Position numbers and translations under genes: made by a program. Below the pieces are notes generated by a model. The model was not told the origin of the DNA. It saw nothing but the letters and a program-made list of their open reading frames with translations, and did no database searches. A DNA stretch of 64,000 bases. Origin: Halomonas ventosae (GTDB lineage: Bacteria > Pseudomonadota > Gammaproteobacteria > Pseudomonadales > Halomonadaceae). Positions 24,101-29,837 of this stretch are shown here, one piece after another (the stretch's first letter is position 1; each line of letters opens with the position of its first letter). Where the stretch lies: the NCBI RefSeq assembly GCF_004361885.1, contig NZ_SNWH01000007.1, forward strand, positions 1 to 64,000. Direction: 5' to 3'.

Positions 24101-25228
24101 TCAGTCGGCGTCGATCTGGATGGACTGGATATAGCGCTCGTGGCGCTTGGTGCGGTCCTTGACCCGGCCCACCAGTTGGCCGCAGGCGGCATCGATGTCA
24201 TCGCCACGGGTGGTGCGGATTGGTGCTGTGTAGCCCAGCTCATAGAGCCACTGCTGGAAGCGCACCACCTGATTGCGCGAGGGCTTCTCGTAACCCGAGT
24301 GCGGGAAGGGATTGAATGGGATCAGGTTGATCTTGCACGGCAGCTCCTCGAGCAGGACGGCGAGTTGCTCGGCATGCTCCTGCTGGTCGTTGATGTCCTT
24401 GATCACCGTGTACTCGATGGTCACCATCCGCGTGTCCTGGCACTTGGCCAGGTAGCGGTGGCAGGCATCGAGCAGGCTACGGATGTTGTACTTGCGGTTG
24501 AGCGGTACCAGCTCGTTGCGCAGTGCATCGTTGGCGGCATGCAGCGAGATGGCCAGGCTCACGTCGAGCTCGTCGCCAAGCCGGTCGATCATCGGCACCA
24601 CACCGGAGGTGGAGAGCGTGACACGACGCTTGGAGAGGCCATAGCCGTCATCGTCGAGCATCAGCTTCATCGCTGGGACGACGTTGTCATAGTTGAGTAG
24701 CGGCTCGCCCATGCCCATCATCACCACGTTGGTGACGGGGCGATGGGCGGTGTCGCGGCGCGGGCCCACGCTGCGCTGGGCCACCCACACCTGGCCGATG
24801 ATCTCGGCGGCGGTGAGATTGCGCTGAAAGCCCTGCTTGCCGGTGGAGCAGAAGCTGCAATCCAGCGAGCAACCGACCTGGGAGGAGACGCACAGGGTAC
24901 GACGCCTGCCGTTGTCGGCGGGGATCAACACCGTCTCGACATAGCTGCCATCCTCCACCTCGAGCACCCACTTGCGGGTGCCGTCGCTGGAGGTGCCCTC
25001 GTAGACCACGCCCGGGCCGCGGATTTCGGCAACCTCGGCCAGGCGCGAGCGCAGCGCCTTGGAGAGGTTGGTCATGGCGGCGAAGTCATCGCAGCCCTCG
25101 ATGTGGATCCACTTCATCACCTGGGCGGCGCGAAACTTCTTCTCGCCGATGGAGAGGAAGAAGGCTTCCATCTCCTCGCGCTTCATGCCGAGCAGGTTGG
25201 TGAGACGGGGAGCAGTGGTGGCGGTCAT
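24101..25228 (-). CDS. rlmN: Dual-specificity 23S rRNA A2503 / tRNA A37 C2-methyltransferase RlmN
   Basis: A 375-residue radical SAM enzyme. The cluster motif C-x3-C-x2-C appears in [15 protein letters not shown]; the catalytic C-terminal Cys lies in DIDAACGQL, and the substrate cysteine regions are intact. It makes m2A in rRNA and in some tRNAs. It lies 5 bases after ndk. Confidence 0.96.
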
Positions 25229-25233
25229 GGCGG

Positions 25234-25659
<426 letters not shown>

Positions 25660-25724
25660 GAGGGCGTGTCTCCGCTTGGTTGGTCAATGATGTGGTGATG
25701 GATGGATGCAGTGGCGATGGATAG

Positions 25725-25768
25725 CGCCGCGTCGCCTCTGGCTCCGCAGGGGAGAGGGCGGCGCGGCG
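25725..25768. terminator. GC-rich stem between iscA and ndk
   Basis: CGCCGCG-T-CGCCTCT pairs with AGAGGGCGGCGCGGCG with one bulge, in the 214-base gap where hscB and further isc genes would normally lie. No T-run is present. It may end or process the isc transcript before ndk. Confidence 0.4.
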
Positions 25769-25852
25769 GATCGGATGATATGGCCGGCGGTCTTGCAGCG
25801 AGCGCCGTCGGGGCGAGGAGTATAACGCTGCGTGCTGGCGTTGAACAATCGT

Positions 25853-25889
25853 TCAGACGCTGAAGCTCATTCGTCAGACGCTGAAGCTC
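25853..25889 (-). repeat. Tandem duplication of the iscA 3' end with its stop codon
   Basis: The 16-base sequence GAGCTTCAGCGTCTGA ends iscA (Ser-Phe-Ser-Val-stop) and recurs 21 bases downstream in the same frame, again ending in TGA. Confidence 0.9.
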
Positions 25890-26200
25890 TCGCCGCAACC
25901 GCACTGGTCCTTGACGTTGGGGTTGTTGAAGCGGAAGAAGCGGTTGAGGCCTTCCGAGACATAGTCGACCTCGCTGCCATCGAGCATCTCCAGGGCCTCG
26001 GGGGCGACGTAGACCGTGACGCCGTGCTCCTCGAAGGTCACGTCGTCGTTGGCCGCCTCGTCGGCGAAGTTAAGCACGTAGCTGTAGCCGGAACAGCCGC
26101 TGGGCTTGACTGAGACGCGCAGGCCAAGCCCGTGGCCCCGCTCGTCGAGCACCCGGTGGATCTGCTCGGCGGCGGCAGTGGTGATCGAAAGGTGTGCCAT
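25874..26200 (-). CDS. iscA: A-type Fe-S carrier protein IscA
   Basis: A 108-residue A-type carrier with the three conserved cysteines Cys36, Cys100 and Cys102 in PSGCSG and QCGCGES. The ending NPNVKDQCGCGESFSV resembles E. coli IscA closely. It carries iron or an Fe-S cluster to apo-proteins. It is 24 bases after iscS; the usual intervening iscU is absent, as are hscB, hscA and fdx downstream. ErpA or SufA naming cannot be excluded without alignment. Confidence 0.88.
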   Translation of the reverse strand: MAHLSITTAAAEQIHRVLDERGHGLGLRVSVKPSGCSGYSYVLNFADEAANDDVTFEEHGVTVYVAPEALEMLDGSEVDYVSEGLNRFFRFNNPNVKDQCGCGESFSV

Positions 26201-26224
26201 GGTCTCTCTCCTAACGTGGTGGGA

Positions 26225-27382
26225 TTAGACCGCCCGGCGAGGCAGCCCGTTGAGGGCGTGTCGCAGGCTATCCAGTGTGCGGTTGATGTCATCCTGGGTG
26301 GTGAAGCGGCCGAAGCTGAAGCGCAGCGAGGCCAGGGCCAGCGAGCGTGACAGGCCGATGCCCTTCAGCACATAGGAGGGCTCGACGCTTGCCGAGTTGC
26401 AGGCCGAGCCGGTGGAGAGCGCGATATCGCGCAGCGCCATCAGCAGCGATTCGCCCTCCACGCCTGCGAAGGCCAGGTTGAGGATGTTGGGCACCGCCAC
26501 CTCGACCGCGGTGTTGCGGTGAATGCCGTGGATATCGGCAATGCCCTCGAGCAGGCGGTCGCGCAGCGCGGTGATGCGCGCCTGATCGGCTTCGCCCTCG
26601 GCAGCGGCGATGGTGAAGGCCTGGCCCATGCCGGCGATCTGGTGGGTGGCCAGGGTGCCCGAGCGCATGCCGCGCTCATGGCCGCCGCCGTGGATCAGCG
26701 CCTGCAGGCGGATGTCGGGGCTGCGCCGCACGTAGAGAGCGCCGATGCCCTTGGGGCCATACACCTTGTGACCGGAGAGCGACATCAGGTCGATGCCCAG
26801 CCGGCCGACGTCCAGCGGGATACGCCCCACCGCCTGGGCGGCATCCACGTGGAAGACCGCTCCACCGGCATGGGTGACCTCTGCCAGCGCCGCTAGGTCG
26901 TGGATGACCCCAAGCTCGTTATGCACGGCCATCAGCGACACCAGCACGGTGTCCTCGCGCATCGCCTCACGCAGCTGTGCCGGGCTGATCCGCCCGTCGC
27001 GGTCCGGCGTCAGCCAGGTCACCTCGAAGCCCTCGTCCTCGAGTGCCGCGGCGGTGTCGACCACCGCCTTGTGCTCGATGATGGAGGTTACCAGATGGCG
27101 CCCACGTGCCCGGTTGGCGCGCATGAAGCCAGTCAGCGCCAGGTTGTCGGCCTCGGTGGCGCCGCTGGTCCAGACGATCTCACGGGGGTCTGCGGCGATC
27201 AGGTCGGCGACTTGGCGGCGGGCGCTCTCCACGACCTGTTCTGCCTGCCAGCCGAGCATGTGGCTGCGCGAGGCGGGGTTGGCAAAGATGCCGTCGAGGG
27301 TCAGGTGGTGGCTCATGACCTCCGCCACCCGCGGGTCGACGGGGGTGGTGGCGGCGTAATCGAGGTAGACGGGTGCGCTCAT
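26225..27382 (-). CDS. iscS: Cysteine desulfurase IscS, shortened C-terminus
   Basis: A PLP enzyme that takes sulfur from Cys for Fe-S clusters and tRNA thiolation. The 385-residue product starts SAPVYLDYAATTPVDPRVAE, has the PLP Lys in SGHKVYGPKG and the persulfide Cys328 in GSACNSAS, the same number as in E. coli. It ends 57 residues after that Cys (GLPRRAV), whereas E. coli IscS continues for 76; the missing tail (LSPLWEMYKQ... in E. coli) is the part required for IscU binding. ATG 27382 was chosen over the open frame upstream that runs through iscR. It follows iscR by 59 bases. Confidence 0.92.
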   Translation of the reverse strand: MSAPVYLDYAATTPVDPRVAEVMSHHLTLDGIFANPASRSHMLGWQAEQVVESARRQVADLIAADPREIVWTSGATEADNLALTGFMRANRARGRHLVTSIIEHKAVVDTAAALEDEGFEVTWLTPDRDGRISPAQLREAMREDTVLVSLMAVHNELGVIHDLAALAEVTHAGGAVFHVDAAQAVGRIPLDVGRLGIDLMSLSGHKVYGPKGIGALYVRRSPDIRLQALIHGGGHERGMRSGTLATHQIAGMGQAFTIAAAEGEADQARITALRDRLLEGIADIHGIHRNTAVEVAVPNILNLAFAGVEGESLLMALRDIALSTGSACNSASVEPSYVLKGIGLSRSLALASLRFSFGRFTTQDDINRTLDSLRHALNGLPRRAV

Positions 27383-27441
27383 GGGTTCGCTGTTCTGATC
27401 GTCAAATCGGGATGGTGGGCTCAGGTATCGGAGCCGCCGGC

Positions 27442-27909
27442 TCAGCTGGTGGAAGCCAGGATGCCCTCGTTCCAGCGGCCGCGCTGGCGGCTGGCGATGG
27501 CCTGGATCTCCCCGCGCTCGGCCAGCTGGGCCAGGGTGACCTCCTTGAGGAAGCCGTGGATGTGCTCTGAGAGCTCGCACCACAAATGGTGGGTCAGGCA
27601 GGTGTCGCCTTGCTGGCAGTCCGAGAGTCCGCCGCAGCGGGTGGTGTCCACGGACTCGTTCACCGCCTCGATGACCTGAGCCACGGTGATGCCCTCCGCT
27701 GCTTGGGCCAGCAGGTAGCCGCCGCCCGGGCCACGCACGCTGTCCACCAGGCGGGCACGGCGTAGCCGCGCGAACAGCTGCTCCAGATAGGAGAGCGAAA
27801 TCTCCTGGCGTTTGGAAATGTCGGCGAGGCAGATGGGGCCGGTGTCGGCATTCATGGCCAGGTCGAGCATGGCGGTGACGGCGTAGCGTCCCTTGGTGGT
27901 CAGGCGCAT
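27442..27909 (-). CDS. iscR: Fe-S cluster-sensing regulator IscR
   Basis: A 155-residue Rrf2-family repressor. The winged helix is at the N-terminus ([43 protein letters not shown]). The three [2Fe-2S] ligands Cys92, Cys98 and Cys104 keep the E. coli spacing, with the likely His ligand in THHLW. Holo-IscR represses its own operon through type-1 sites. ATG 27909 gives the exact family start; the longer upstream frame is rejected. A matching operator overlaps its promoter. Confidence 0.95.
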
Positions 27910-27965: not shown

Positions 27966-27999
27966 ATTATGGTAAAGACCGAGTATCCTGGTCAACCAT
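27966..27999 (-). promoter_or_regulatory. iscR promoter with overlapping IscR type-1 operator
   Basis: On the minus strand TTGACC (27995-27990), an 18-base spacer and CATAAT (27971-27966). The TTGACC AGGATACTCGGT region matches what I recall of IscR type-1 sites (TTGACC-x4-TACTCGG). The TGA within the -35 hexamer is also the stop codon of cysE. Confidence 0.7.
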
Positions 28000-28870
28000 T
28001 GCGCCGTCGTGGGGCGGCATCGACCGCCCGCTGGCCCTGTGCCGCGTCCTCGCTGTGCTGCTCTTCCGGGGGCGGGGGGCAACAGCTATCGACGTCGGCG
28101 AGGATGTTGGCGAAGTCCTCATCGCGCAGTTTCGGCAGGCGGCCGTCGCGGTAGCTGGCGTCGACCTTGCGCAGGGTCATGCACATGCGCTCGATGCGCT
28201 CGTCCACGGCGTGCATATGGTCGAGCATGGCCTGGATGGAGCGGGCCACCGGATCGGGCATGTCCTGGCTGACACCGTAGGCGTCGAAACCGAACTTGCG
28301 GCGCATCGCCTCGCGGCGCGCGGGGTCCACTTCCGGCTCCTCGGCCTGGTCGGGCTCGGCACGCTTCACGACCTTACCGGGGATGCCGACCACCGTGGCC
28401 CCGGCGGGCACCGCCTTGGTGATCACGGCGTTGGAGCCGATCTTGGCCCCAGCGCCGACCGTGAACGGACCGAGGATCTTGGCGCCGGCGCCGACGATCA
28501 CGCCGTCTTCCAGGGTTGGATGGCGCTTGCCCTTGTTCCAGCTGGTGCCGCCCAGTGTCACGCCTTGATAGAGGGTGACGTCGTCGCCGACCTCGGCGGT
28601 CTCGCCGATCACCACGCCCATGCCATGGTCAATGAAAAAACGCCGGCCGATTTGCGCGCCGGGATGGATCTCGATGCCGGTCAGCCAGCGCGAGAAGGTG
28701 GACAGGGTGCGCGCCAGCCACTTGAGGTTATGGCGCCATAGCCAGCTACCCAGGCGATGGGCGAGTAGCGCATGCAATCCGGGGTAGTTGGTCAGCACTT
28801 CCAGGAAGTTGCGTGCCGCCGGATCGCGGGCGAATACGCTGTTGATGTCCTCGCGCAGACGTTCAAGCAT
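27992..28870 (-). CDS. cysE: Serine O-acetyltransferase
   Basis: Acetylates serine with acetyl-CoA, the first committed step of cysteine synthesis and so the source of IscS substrate. The 292-residue protein has an N-terminal helical domain ([20 protein letters not shown]) and a left-handed hexapeptide-repeat C-terminal half ([53 protein letters not shown]). A long Pro/Glu-rich tail follows. The start at 28870 was chosen by homology. Its stop lies in the iscR promoter. Confidence 0.93.
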
Positions 28871-28953
28871 GCAGCGGTCCTTAGGTGACGGGGCGGTGGG
28901 CGGTGGCTTCATAGTGAGGGCGCGATGGTCCGGCTTCAAGCGACAGGCCTCCA

Positions 28954-29700
28954 TTACTCATGGTGCTCGACCTGCTGCTCGGTGGCGGTGAGGATGCCGC
29001 GCAGGATATTGAGCTCCATCCGCTCGGGGCGTGCGCGTAGGGTGAAGCGGCGCAGTCGAGCCATCAGCTGTCGCGGCGTGGCTGGGTCGTGGAAACCGAT
29101 GGCGACCAGGGTGCGCTCCAGGTGCGCGAAATAGTGCTCAAGTTCCTCATGGCTGGCCAGCGGCTGGGACGGTGGCGCCTCGACCTGGGCCGCCGTTTCC
29201 TGCTGGCCCAGCCAGGCCTGGCGGCATTCGTAGGCCAGCACCTGCACCGCGGCGGCCAGGTTTAGGGAGCTGAAGTCGGGGTTGGCGGGGATATGCACAT
29301 GGGCGTGGCAGCGCTGCAGTTCGCTGTTGGTCAGTCCGCTGTCCTCGCGGCCCAAGACCAGGGCGACGCGCGCCTCGGGGCTGGCCAGCTCTTCTGGCAG
29401 CCGCTCGCCGAGCGCGCGGGGCGTGATCATCGGCCAGGGCAGAGTGCGCGAGCGGGCGCTGGCCCCGACGACCAGGGTGGCGTCGCCCACCGCCTGCTCC
29501 AGTCTCTCCACCCGGCGGGCGCTATGCACGATGTGGTCGGCCCCTGAGGCGCGGGAGACGGTCTCGGCGGTGAGCGGCGCGCAGCGCGGCGCCACCAGGG
29601 CCAGATCGGACAGGCCCATGTTGTGCATGGCGCGGGCGGTGGCGCCGATGTTGCCGGGGTGGCTGGTGCCAATCAGGACGATGCGGATGCGCTCGAGCAT
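28954..29700 (-). CDS. trmJ: tRNA (cytidine/uridine-2'-O-)-methyltransferase TrmJ
   Basis: A 248-residue SPOUT-class enzyme that 2'-O-methylates nucleotide 32 of several tRNAs. The trefoil-knot SAM region is visible: [20 protein letters not shown] at the N-terminus, [16 protein letters not shown], and [18 protein letters not shown]. The dimerising helical tail ([20 protein letters not shown]) is present. Start ATG 29700 is by homology. trmJ before iscR is common in gammaproteobacteria; cysE is inserted between them here, as in Pseudomonas-type arrangements. Confidence 0.94.
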
Positions 29701-29837
29701 GGAGGGCCTGTGGATGCGGGGGGAGGCGGGCGATTCTATCACGTCGCTCCGGGGCGTCGAATGGCACGCCCCGCGCGCTTCTGCTAGGATGCGCGCCGAC
29801 CCGTTCTTTAACACCCCTGACTCCCCAAGGCCCGATC

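What the first reader, a model, noticed from the sequence alone, without database searches (positions are those of the whole stretch)
25660..27909. isc locus reduced to iscR-iscS-iscA, with an IscS that lacks its IscU-binding tail
Seen directly: iscS and iscA are 24 bases apart with no room for iscU; iscA is followed by 214 bases and then ndk, where hscB-hscA-fdx-iscX stand in Pseudomonas-type genomes. The surrounding order (trmJ-cysE-iscR ... ndk-rlmN-pilW-rodZ) is otherwise conserved. IscS keeps Cys328 but ends 19 residues earlier than the E. coli enzyme, and that tail is known to be needed for IscU binding. The two losses fit together: the scaffold is gone and so is its docking site. IscS would then serve tRNA thiolation or other acceptors, with clusters built elsewhere (probably SUF), while IscR keeps its three cluster Cys and still senses cluster supply.
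Basis: partly seen in the sequence, partly recalled or inferred. Interest (0 to 1): 0.7.

Follow-up and report, generated by a model that had tools for sequence, protein, structure and literature searches.

The report
IscS remnant stripped of scaffold docks
This salt-loving bacterium has lost the IscU-based iron-sulfur assembly line but keeps its sulfur-supplying enzyme, which has shed the surfaces that held the lost partners and now most likely feeds other jobs such as tRNA modification; the same pattern recurs across many related bacteria.

Summary
In a 99.99% complete genome, a Halomonas by its nearest named relatives, the isc locus is iscR-iscS-iscA; IscU, HscA and HscB were not found in the genome, and a SUF set is present (sufBCDS-sufT plus sufE). 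It is a family trait: none of 254 Halomonadaceae genomes showed an ordinary stand-alone IscU.

In 190 of 195 genomes of the order with readable IscS, intact tail and IscU coincide: 84 have both, 106 neither, none one alone. Eight families hold both states. CyaY (frataxin) is in 56 of 86 IscU genomes and 0 of 109 others; TusA is in all 109 others.

Beyond the tail, IscU-less IscS also lost the arginine patch that in E. coli binds CyaY, IscX and ferredoxin (R112 9%, R116 11%, R223 14% kept). TusA contacts W45, 52, R55, R220, R237 stay at 97-100%, but a control weakens this: they also stay in eight IscU genomes without TusA, where only E49 changes (6 of 8), and E49 is Q in Halomonadaceae.

Three IscU-less genomes carry decayed tails. 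Likely function: sulfur supply to TusA and ThiI. Whether tails decayed in place or iscS was swapped is settled for one lineage only.

The parts
27442..27909 (-). iscR, Rrf2-type Fe-S sensor regulator; cluster Cys/His motif kept
   Evidence: TIGR02010 209.5 bits, cut-off 207.55; motif
26225..27382 (-). iscS, cysteine desulfurase of 385 aa; Lys206 and Cys328 kept; residues 386-404 of the E. coli enzyme absent; CyaY/IscX/Fdx patch eroded (112 A, 116 D, 223 D, 340 K; 225 still R); TusA contacts W45, E52, R55, R220, R237, M239 kept, position 49 is Q
   Evidence: TIGR02006 532.5 bits, cut-off 643.2, matched to profile position 378 of 402; residues
26201..26224 (.). 24-base iscS-iscA gap where iscU stands in isc operons of relatives
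   Evidence: compare L187
25874..26200 (-). iscA, A-type Fe-S carrier, kept at the locus in Halomonadaceae
   Evidence: TIGR02011 137.9 bits (cut-off 150.6), TIGR00049 116.9 bits (cut-off 58.8); iscA between iscS and ndk in 6 of 60 IscU-less loci, 5 of them Halomonadaceae
25660..25873 (.). 214-base stretch where hscB-hscA-fdx-iscX stand in isc operons of relatives
25234..25659 (-). ndk, downstream neighbour conserved in place
   Evidence: NF001908 over cut-off
24101..25228 (-). rlmN, downstream neighbour conserved in place
   Evidence: TIGR00048 over cut-off
27992..28954 (-). cysE, upstream neighbour conserved in place
   Evidence: TIGR01172 over cut-off
28954..29814 (-). trmJ, upstream neighbour conserved in place
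   Evidence: TIGR00050 over cut-off

Best explanation
The locus is an isc operon reduced to regulator, desulfurase and A-type carrier in a bacterium that builds Fe-S clusters with SUF. The IscS looks like a working desulfurase (PLP lysine and Cys328 kept) that no longer docks IscU, ferredoxin, IscX or frataxin: those partners are absent (ferredoxin and IscX checked only at the locus) and their contact residues have eroded. It most likely hands persulfide to TusA, and so to the Tus relay and MnmA for 2-thiouridine in tRNA, and to ThiI where present; SUF does not replace IscS in that role in E. coli. Shown: gene content, co-occurrence, residue patterns. Inferred: TusA and ThiI as the clients, no IscU-type chemistry, IscR sensing SUF-made clusters, IscA acting as the SUF-side carrier.
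For: No IscU/SufU in G000 and none of ordinary stand-alone type in 254 family genomes (8 hits; 4 strong in frames of 333-438 aa beside NifS genes, one read and shown to be NifU; 4 weak, one classified as a divergent 130-aa protein beside an ABC permease). SUF locus with its own Rrf2-type regulator; SufBD and SufE in 121 of 121. Tail and IscU: 84 both, 106 neither, 0 mixed. CyaY in 56 of 86 IscU genomes and 0 of 109 others. TusA matches in 109 of 109 IscU-less genomes. Of 183 positions at or above 95% in 49 IscU-paired IscS, 18 fall below 40% in 90 IscU-less ones, among them R112, R116, R223, R225, E227, R340 (6 of 10 mapped CyaY/IscX positions; P 6e-5, not corrected for phylogeny), IscU contacts E309, S312, E347, and 0 of 6 TusA positions; much the same with one row per genus (32 and 63) or family (25 and 26). 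Decayed tails in IscU-less G122, G015, G043, G122 being sister of its IscU-bearing genus-mate G072. NifS beside NifU keeps LR-x-LSPYW in 11 of 11 found. In E. coli, suf on a plasmid in an iscS mutant restores s2C and ms2i6A but not s4U or s2U (PMC11784392, passages).
Against: Control against the TusA reading: in the eight readable IscS of IscU genomes without a TusA match, W45, E52, R55, R220, R237 and M239 are all kept (8 of 8), so their retention does not prove TusA docking; only position 49 follows TusA (A in 6 of 8, E in 2 of 8; E in 45 of 46 IscU rows with TusA). In IscU-less rows, position 49 is loose (E 52, Q 26, A 8, other 4 of 90; Q in 20 of 20 Halomonadaceae) although E49A abolishes TusA binding in E. 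coli. The E. coli deletion that loses IscU binding is larger (376-404) than the natural loss, and L386R and M389R still bound IscU. R225 is still R in 16 of 20 Halomonadaceae rows. The IscS tree groups by IscU state and rejects families f21 and f26 as clades (p 0.003, 0.001), so some short IscS may have been swapped in. ThiI over the cut-off is missing from 47 of 109 IscU-less genomes. No expression or binding data.
Confidence: 0.76

Rival explanations
1. The short IscS is an old, separate IscS lineage, and iscS travels with iscUA-hscBA-fdx as a block: tail and IscU coincide because the two operon types replace each other by horizontal exchange, not because tails erode after iscU is lost.
For: The IscS tree (139 rows) needs only 2 changes of IscU state, against 11 on the flank-gene tree (66 rows) and 22 on the IscR tree (126 rows, poorly resolved); the row sets differ. 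f21 and f26 are rejected as IscS clades, while IscR has f26 and f34 as clades (support 93 and 78, not starred), does not reject f21 (p 0.33) and rejects all IscU-bearing rows as one clade (p 4e-5).
Against: G122 is nested among IscU-bearing IscS beside genus-mate G072 (SH-aLRT 98 and 99) yet has a decayed tail; G015 and G043 keep remnants. IscU-less rows have long branches, so their grouping may be an artefact; f37 is not rejected (p 0.31). The rival concerns history, not present function.
Confidence: 0.4
2. The retained IscS is a second sulfur source for SUF rather than a tRNA-thiolation enzyme.
For: In 17 of 60 IscU-less loci the next searched gene after iscS is sufB on the same strand, and 26 of 60 have suf genes in the fetched stretch. 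The TusA-tracking residue E49 is not kept in Halomonadaceae.
Against: SufS is in the same stretches; in G000 iscS and suf are on different contigs (C7 and C11) and suf has SufS and SufE.
Confidence: 0.14
3. IscU-less IscS simply evolves faster everywhere; tail and patch losses are part of general relaxation.
For: Long branches of many IscU-less rows.
Against: Median retention of the 183 positions is 0.97; losses concentrate in mapped partner sites.
Confidence: 0.05
4. IscU is present but unrecognised, or lies in an assembly gap.
For: Weak, divergent NifU_N hits occur in 4 of 254 family genomes.
Against: None in G000; IscU-less genomes in one contig exist (G033, G064; G172); the profile rings in 12 of 14 control genomes.
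Confidence: 0.02

Closest known systems
ISC operon iscRSUA-hscBA-fdx-iscX of E. coli and relatives in this order
   Same: Same place between trmJ-cysE and ndk-rlmN as in L187; orthologous iscR, iscS, iscA; IscS gapless to E. coli IscS up to residue 378 with the catalytic residues
   Different: No iscU, hscB, hscA, fdx or iscX at the locus; IscS lacks 386-404 and most of the CyaY/IscX/Fdx patch
Solitary IscS of SUF-based Mycobacterium tuberculosis (PMC10848736, PMC8300815; passages read)
   Same: ISC reduced to iscS beside a complete SUF; a tRNA role is discussed through trmU
   Different: Far less similar IscS (4isy, 242 bits against 504 for E. coli) and not at an isc place; here iscR and iscA stay. 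Its C-terminal end was not compared
Single operon for Fe-S genes of Caulobacter and other Alphaproteobacteria (PMC11475020, listing and start of abstract only; gene order recalled)
   Same: Resembles the 17 IscU-less loci with sufB after iscS
   Different: Halomonas G000 has suf elsewhere with its own Rrf2-type regulator
NifS-NifU
   Same: Type I desulfurase with LR-x-LSPYW before its end, beside a U-type scaffold
   Different: Nif system; the end after LSPYW is unlike IscS

Membership tests
Functional ISC system | Scaffold IscU | tested here: not met
   0 matches in G000
Functional ISC system | HscA-HscB chaperone pair | tested here: not met
   HscA hits all below the cut-off, the best one next to a DnaJ-like hit; the one HscB hit is a J-domain match below the cut-off
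Functional ISC system | Ferredoxin Fdx | tested here: inconclusive
   Not at the locus: no room between iscA and ndk and no fdx hit in the 80 named relatives' loci; not searched genome-wide
Functional ISC system | IscS with the C-terminal IscU-binding segment | tested here: not met
   Match ends at 378 of 402; protein ends GLPRRAV
IscS subfamily (type I cysteine desulfurase) | PLP Lys206, Cys328 loop, IscS-type sequence | tested here: met
   Gapless to E. coli IscS 1-378; K206 and C328 in 90 of 90 IscU-less rows; IscS is the best-scoring kind, though below both curated IscS cut-offs (547.6 of 548; 532.5 of 643.2)
IscS subfamily (type I cysteine desulfurase) | TusA docking site | tested here: inconclusive
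   W45, E52, R55, R220, R237 kept but position 49 is Q; the kept ones stay even without TusA
SUF system | sufBCD scaffold with SufS and SufE | tested here: met
   L063 and G000:C3:47238-47591
IscR regulator | Three cluster Cys and His | tested here: met
   C-x5-C-x5-C-x2-H
Orphan IscS serving tRNA thiolation | Persulfide transfer to TusA or ThiI in vitro, or s2U/s4U dependence in vivo | not testable with these tools
   needs bench work; TusA and ThiI genes are present in G000

The most novel reading that the evidence does not exclude
IscS carries separable docks whose survival is set partner by partner. LR-x-LSPxW is an anchor for U-type scaffolds shared by IscS and NifS; the extreme end (393-404; 394-404 unmodelled in the E. 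coli IscS-IscU crystal, yet G393, D395, W401, H404 are invariant in 49 IscU-paired rows) is IscU-specific; the R112/R116/R223/R225 patch is held by ferredoxin or IscX rather than by frataxin or ThiI, since it stays in IscU genomes with or without CyaY and goes in IscU-less genomes with or without ThiI; and residue 49 follows TusA in IscU genomes. If general, the IscS sequence alone tells which Fe-S machine and which sulfur clients a bacterium has, and repeated iscU loss (or swapping at an iscR/iscS break) is a natural deletion series for the IscS interaction map.
Probability: 0.47. Interest if true: 0.65.

Novelty: new variant of a known kind. Interest (0 to 1): 0.52.

Why it matters
Why SUF-only bacteria keep an IscS is often left open. 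Here evolution has run the experiment several times: where IscU and its helpers are absent, IscS lacks the surfaces mapped to them in E. coli. That assigns the arginine patch to ISC partners other than frataxin and ThiI, gives a purpose to the C-terminal end that E. coli crystals do not show, supports a role for orphan IscS outside cluster assembly, and offers a one-gene marker for telling ISC from SUF genomes. The reverse case, TusA-less genomes that changed residue 49, suggests that the method also reads other clients.

Tried and rejected
Short IscS as an annotation or sequencing slip: rejected, 80 of 80 named relatives agree. IscU elsewhere: rejected for G000. ThiI as keeper of the arginine patch: disfavoured; among the 76 of 90 IscU-less rows that lie in the ThiI draw, retention is about equal with ThiI (46 rows) and without (30 rows), R225 apart (0.17 versus 0.53). 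CyaY as keeper: disfavoured; 14 CyaY-less IscU rows keep R112, R223, R225, R340 in 14 of 14 and R116 in 12 of 14. Rooting or dating tail loss on the IscS tree: not possible; it separates by IscU state with long branches. The f21, f37 and f26 clade tests were chosen after the first tree had been seen. In one search the careful tree did not finish and the quick one was used; the tail trait given there was set equal to IscU state, and the equality was checked afterwards by motif in all 139 IscS (49 both, 90 neither). No structure was predicted. The one-scan named search kept 80 of 140 loci.

Dropped rows: of 195 genomes, G103 and G180 (no IscS found), G104 (fragment), and IscU-bearing G109 (no IscS found) and G167 (match only to 318) are outside the 84/0/0/106 table. 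IscU was counted as 86 after setting aside 7 NifU-type and 7 weak PF01592 hits of the 100. NifS was found in 11 of the 12 stretches looked at; G074 gave none. Of four weak PF01592 hits in the family, L272 was classified, L274 only listed, L273 and L275 fetched and not read. One TusA-less genome (G109) had no IscS for the control.
Full report
WHAT IS THERE. The window carries, all on the minus strand, trmJ-cysE-iscR-iscS-iscA-ndk-rlmN. The gaps are as reported: 24 bases between iscS and iscA, 214 between iscA and ndk. IscS has 385 residues, is gapless to E. coli IscS residues 1-378, has its cysteine at 328 and stops 19 residues short. IscR has the cluster Cys/His motif. By its nearest named IscS (91-92% identity in five Halomonas records) the host is a Halomonas, and family f1 is taken to be Halomonadaceae, to which the named genera belong.

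THE GENOME. G000 is 3.24 Mb in 64 contigs, 99.99% complete. It has no PF01592 (IscU/SufU) match, no HscA or HscB over the cut-offs, and a SUF locus (Rrf2-type SUF regulator, sufB, sufC, sufD, sufS, sufT) with SufE on another contig. It has TusA and ThiI and no CyaY. Fdx was not searched genome-wide.

THE FAMILY. The 254 family genomes held at 90% completeness or better were searched for PF01592: 8 matched. Four are strong, in frames of 333-438 aa and beside NifS genes; the one read in full (G325) is NifU. Four are weak; the one classified is a divergent protein of 130 aa beside an ABC permease. SufBD and SufE are in 121 of 121. In 80 named relatives 79 loci read cysE-iscR-iscS-iscA-ndk-rlmN and one trmJ-iscR-iscS-iscA-ndk-rlmN; none has an iscU, hscA, hscB, fdx or iscX hit within the fetched stretch, and none has the tail motif.

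THE ORDER. The same draw of 195 genomes (43 family codes) was searched for IscU, IscS, CyaY, TusA and ThiI. Stand-alone IscU is in 86. IscS reaching profile position 402 is in 84, all with IscU; two IscU genomes have no complete IscS; of 109 without IscU, 106 have a readable IscS and none reaches 402. Eight families (f12, f14, f16, f21, f26, f34, f37, f41) hold both states. On a tree of flanking proteins (TrmJ, SuhB, RlmN, Ndk; 66 genomes; quick method) the state changes at least 11 times, 7 forced by starred branches, and in 7 of 7 independent pairs tail and IscU go together (sign test p 0.016). CyaY is in 56 genomes, all with IscU; that genomes with cyaY also have iscU is already published (PMC4440780, passages). 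TusA matches in 186 (182 over the cut-off); the nine without a match all have IscU, so it matches in 109 of 109 IscU-less genomes.

NEIGHBOURHOODS. Of 80 loci of 7 to 11.5 kb, all 20 IscU-bearing ones read iscR-iscS-iscU-iscA-hscB-hscA-fdx (iscX hit in 18), and none of the 60 IscU-less ones has a hit to iscU, hscB, hscA, fdx or iscX. The place near trmJ/cysE and ndk/rlmN is often the same. Among the genes searched for, the next after iscS is sufB in 17 of the 60, ndk in 31 and iscA in 6 (five Halomonadaceae, one f13).

WHICH SURFACES WENT. Residues were compared in 49 IscU-paired and 90 IscU-less IscS, with contact data from Shi et al. 2010 (PMC2854127; passages and section 9 part 1) and the ferredoxin study (PMC3750173, passages). 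The tail 383-404 is gone or unrelated. R112, R116, R223, R225 and R340, which are among the positions where mutation weakens or abolishes IscX, CyaY or (R112/R116, R220/R223/R225) Fdx binding in E. coli, are kept in 9, 11, 14, 38 and 23%, against a median of 97% for the 183 positions conserved in IscU-paired IscS. R220 and R237, used by TusA as well, are kept. In IscU genomes the patch stays with or without CyaY and with or without ThiI, and in IscU-less genomes it is lost with or without ThiI, which points to Fdx or IscX (inference). The end 394-404 is not modelled in the E. coli IscS-IscU crystal, but in the mitochondrial complex NFS1 Met436-Thr455 wraps around ISCU and Trp454 touches its Ala-loop (PMC5668364, passages); by the shared cysteine (Cys381 = Cys328) Trp454 would be W401, present in 49 of 49 IscU-paired rows (my inference).

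THE TusA SITE, WITH A CONTROL THAT CUTS BOTH WAYS. W45, 52, R55, R220 and R237 are kept in 97-100% of IscU-less rows. But IscS of eight IscU genomes with no TusA match (G021, G038, G057, G069, G085, G120, G142, G182; families f22 and f38) keep all of them too; only position 49 changes, to A in 6 of 8, the very change that abolishes TusA binding in E. coli (E49A). So retention of the other residues does not prove TusA docking. In IscU-less rows position 49 is E in 52, Q in 26, A in 8 and other in 4; in Halomonadaceae it is Q in 20 of 20. The TusA reading therefore rests on universal TusA and on E. coli genetics, less on this site.

FOSSILS AND AN INTERNAL CONTROL. Three IscU-less genomes keep decayed tails: G122 (LREFSPQWKQYQNTKDLVQERAAAQ), G015 (LRELSPQWRVFKEKQAAGH), G043 (LRSVSPQWKRAQKSL). 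All have Q at 386 and keep W387. G122 is sister to its IscU-bearing genus-mate G072, whose tail is intact. NifS beside NifU keeps LR-x-LSPYW in 11 of 11 found, followed by an unrelated end; ten of these genomes lack IscU and their IscS matches stop at or before profile position 384, the eleventh, G042, has IscU and a full IscS tail.

HISTORY IS NOT SETTLED. The IscS tree separates almost by IscU state alone (2 changes) and rejects f21 and f26 as clades (p 0.003 and 0.001) but not f37 (0.31). The adjacent IscR has f26 and f34 as clades with modest support, does not reject f21 (0.33), and rejects all IscU-bearing rows as one clade (4e-5). So either iscS changed convergently and fast where iscU is absent, or iscS was exchanged together with the genes downstream of iscR. 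Only G122, and more weakly G015 and G043, show decay in place.

MECHANISM. In E. coli, suf on a plasmid restores Fe-S-dependent tRNA thiolations in an iscS mutant but not s2U or s4U (PMC11784392, passages). A SUF-only cell may therefore still need IscS for TusA and ThiI, which G000 has. That makes sulfur supply for tRNA thiolation the best-supported role (inference). IscA may carry SUF-made clusters, since the suf locus read in G000 shows no sufA, and IscR would sense them (inference).

WHAT IS KNOWN. That most bacteria have one system, usually SUF, and that some Pseudomonadales are SUF-only is published (PMC11559095, passages), as is a solitary iscS in M. tuberculosis (PMC10848736, PMC8300815, passages). 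Ten full-text searches showed, among the rows listed (titles and starts of abstracts; lists were cut in several), no paper on the co-occurrence of IscS tail and IscU or on partner-by-partner erosion. The library lacks most subscription journals, so this is weak evidence of novelty.

Noticed in passing
L272:1741-2133 (-) in G091; weak hits also in G226, G351, G322: A divergent 130-aa NifU_N protein (PF01592, 34 bits, from profile position 35) directly after an ABC-transporter permease gene; weak hits in 4 of 254 Halomonadaceae genomes; not an IscU.
   Followed up: partly
iscR and iscS of the fetched loci (L033-L187): IscR trees tend to follow the organisms' families while IscS trees follow IscU presence, as if histories break between the two adjacent genes.
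   Followed up: partly
L108, L109, L113 (G122, G015, G043): Three decayed IscS tails in different families share Q at 386 with W387 kept; perhaps the exposed scaffold-contact leucine goes first while the tryptophan packs on IscS itself.
   Followed up: no
IscS of G021, G038, G057, G069, G085, G120, G142, G182 (families f22, f38): IscU genomes without a TusA match: tail and patch intact, but residue 49 is A in 6 of 8, the mirror image of the IscU-less case.
   Followed up: partly
G007, G047, G125 (L149, L145, L138), genus f8g12; G008 (L130): IscR of f8g12 departs from the cluster motif in three of three read (cysteines missing, His to Gln, or a wider spacing); in G008 iscS stands before iscR.
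   Followed up: no
G000:C20:32598-34292: A second Hsp70-like frame of 581 aa, 367 bits to HscA and far below its cut-off, besides the DnaK-like one.
   Followed up: no
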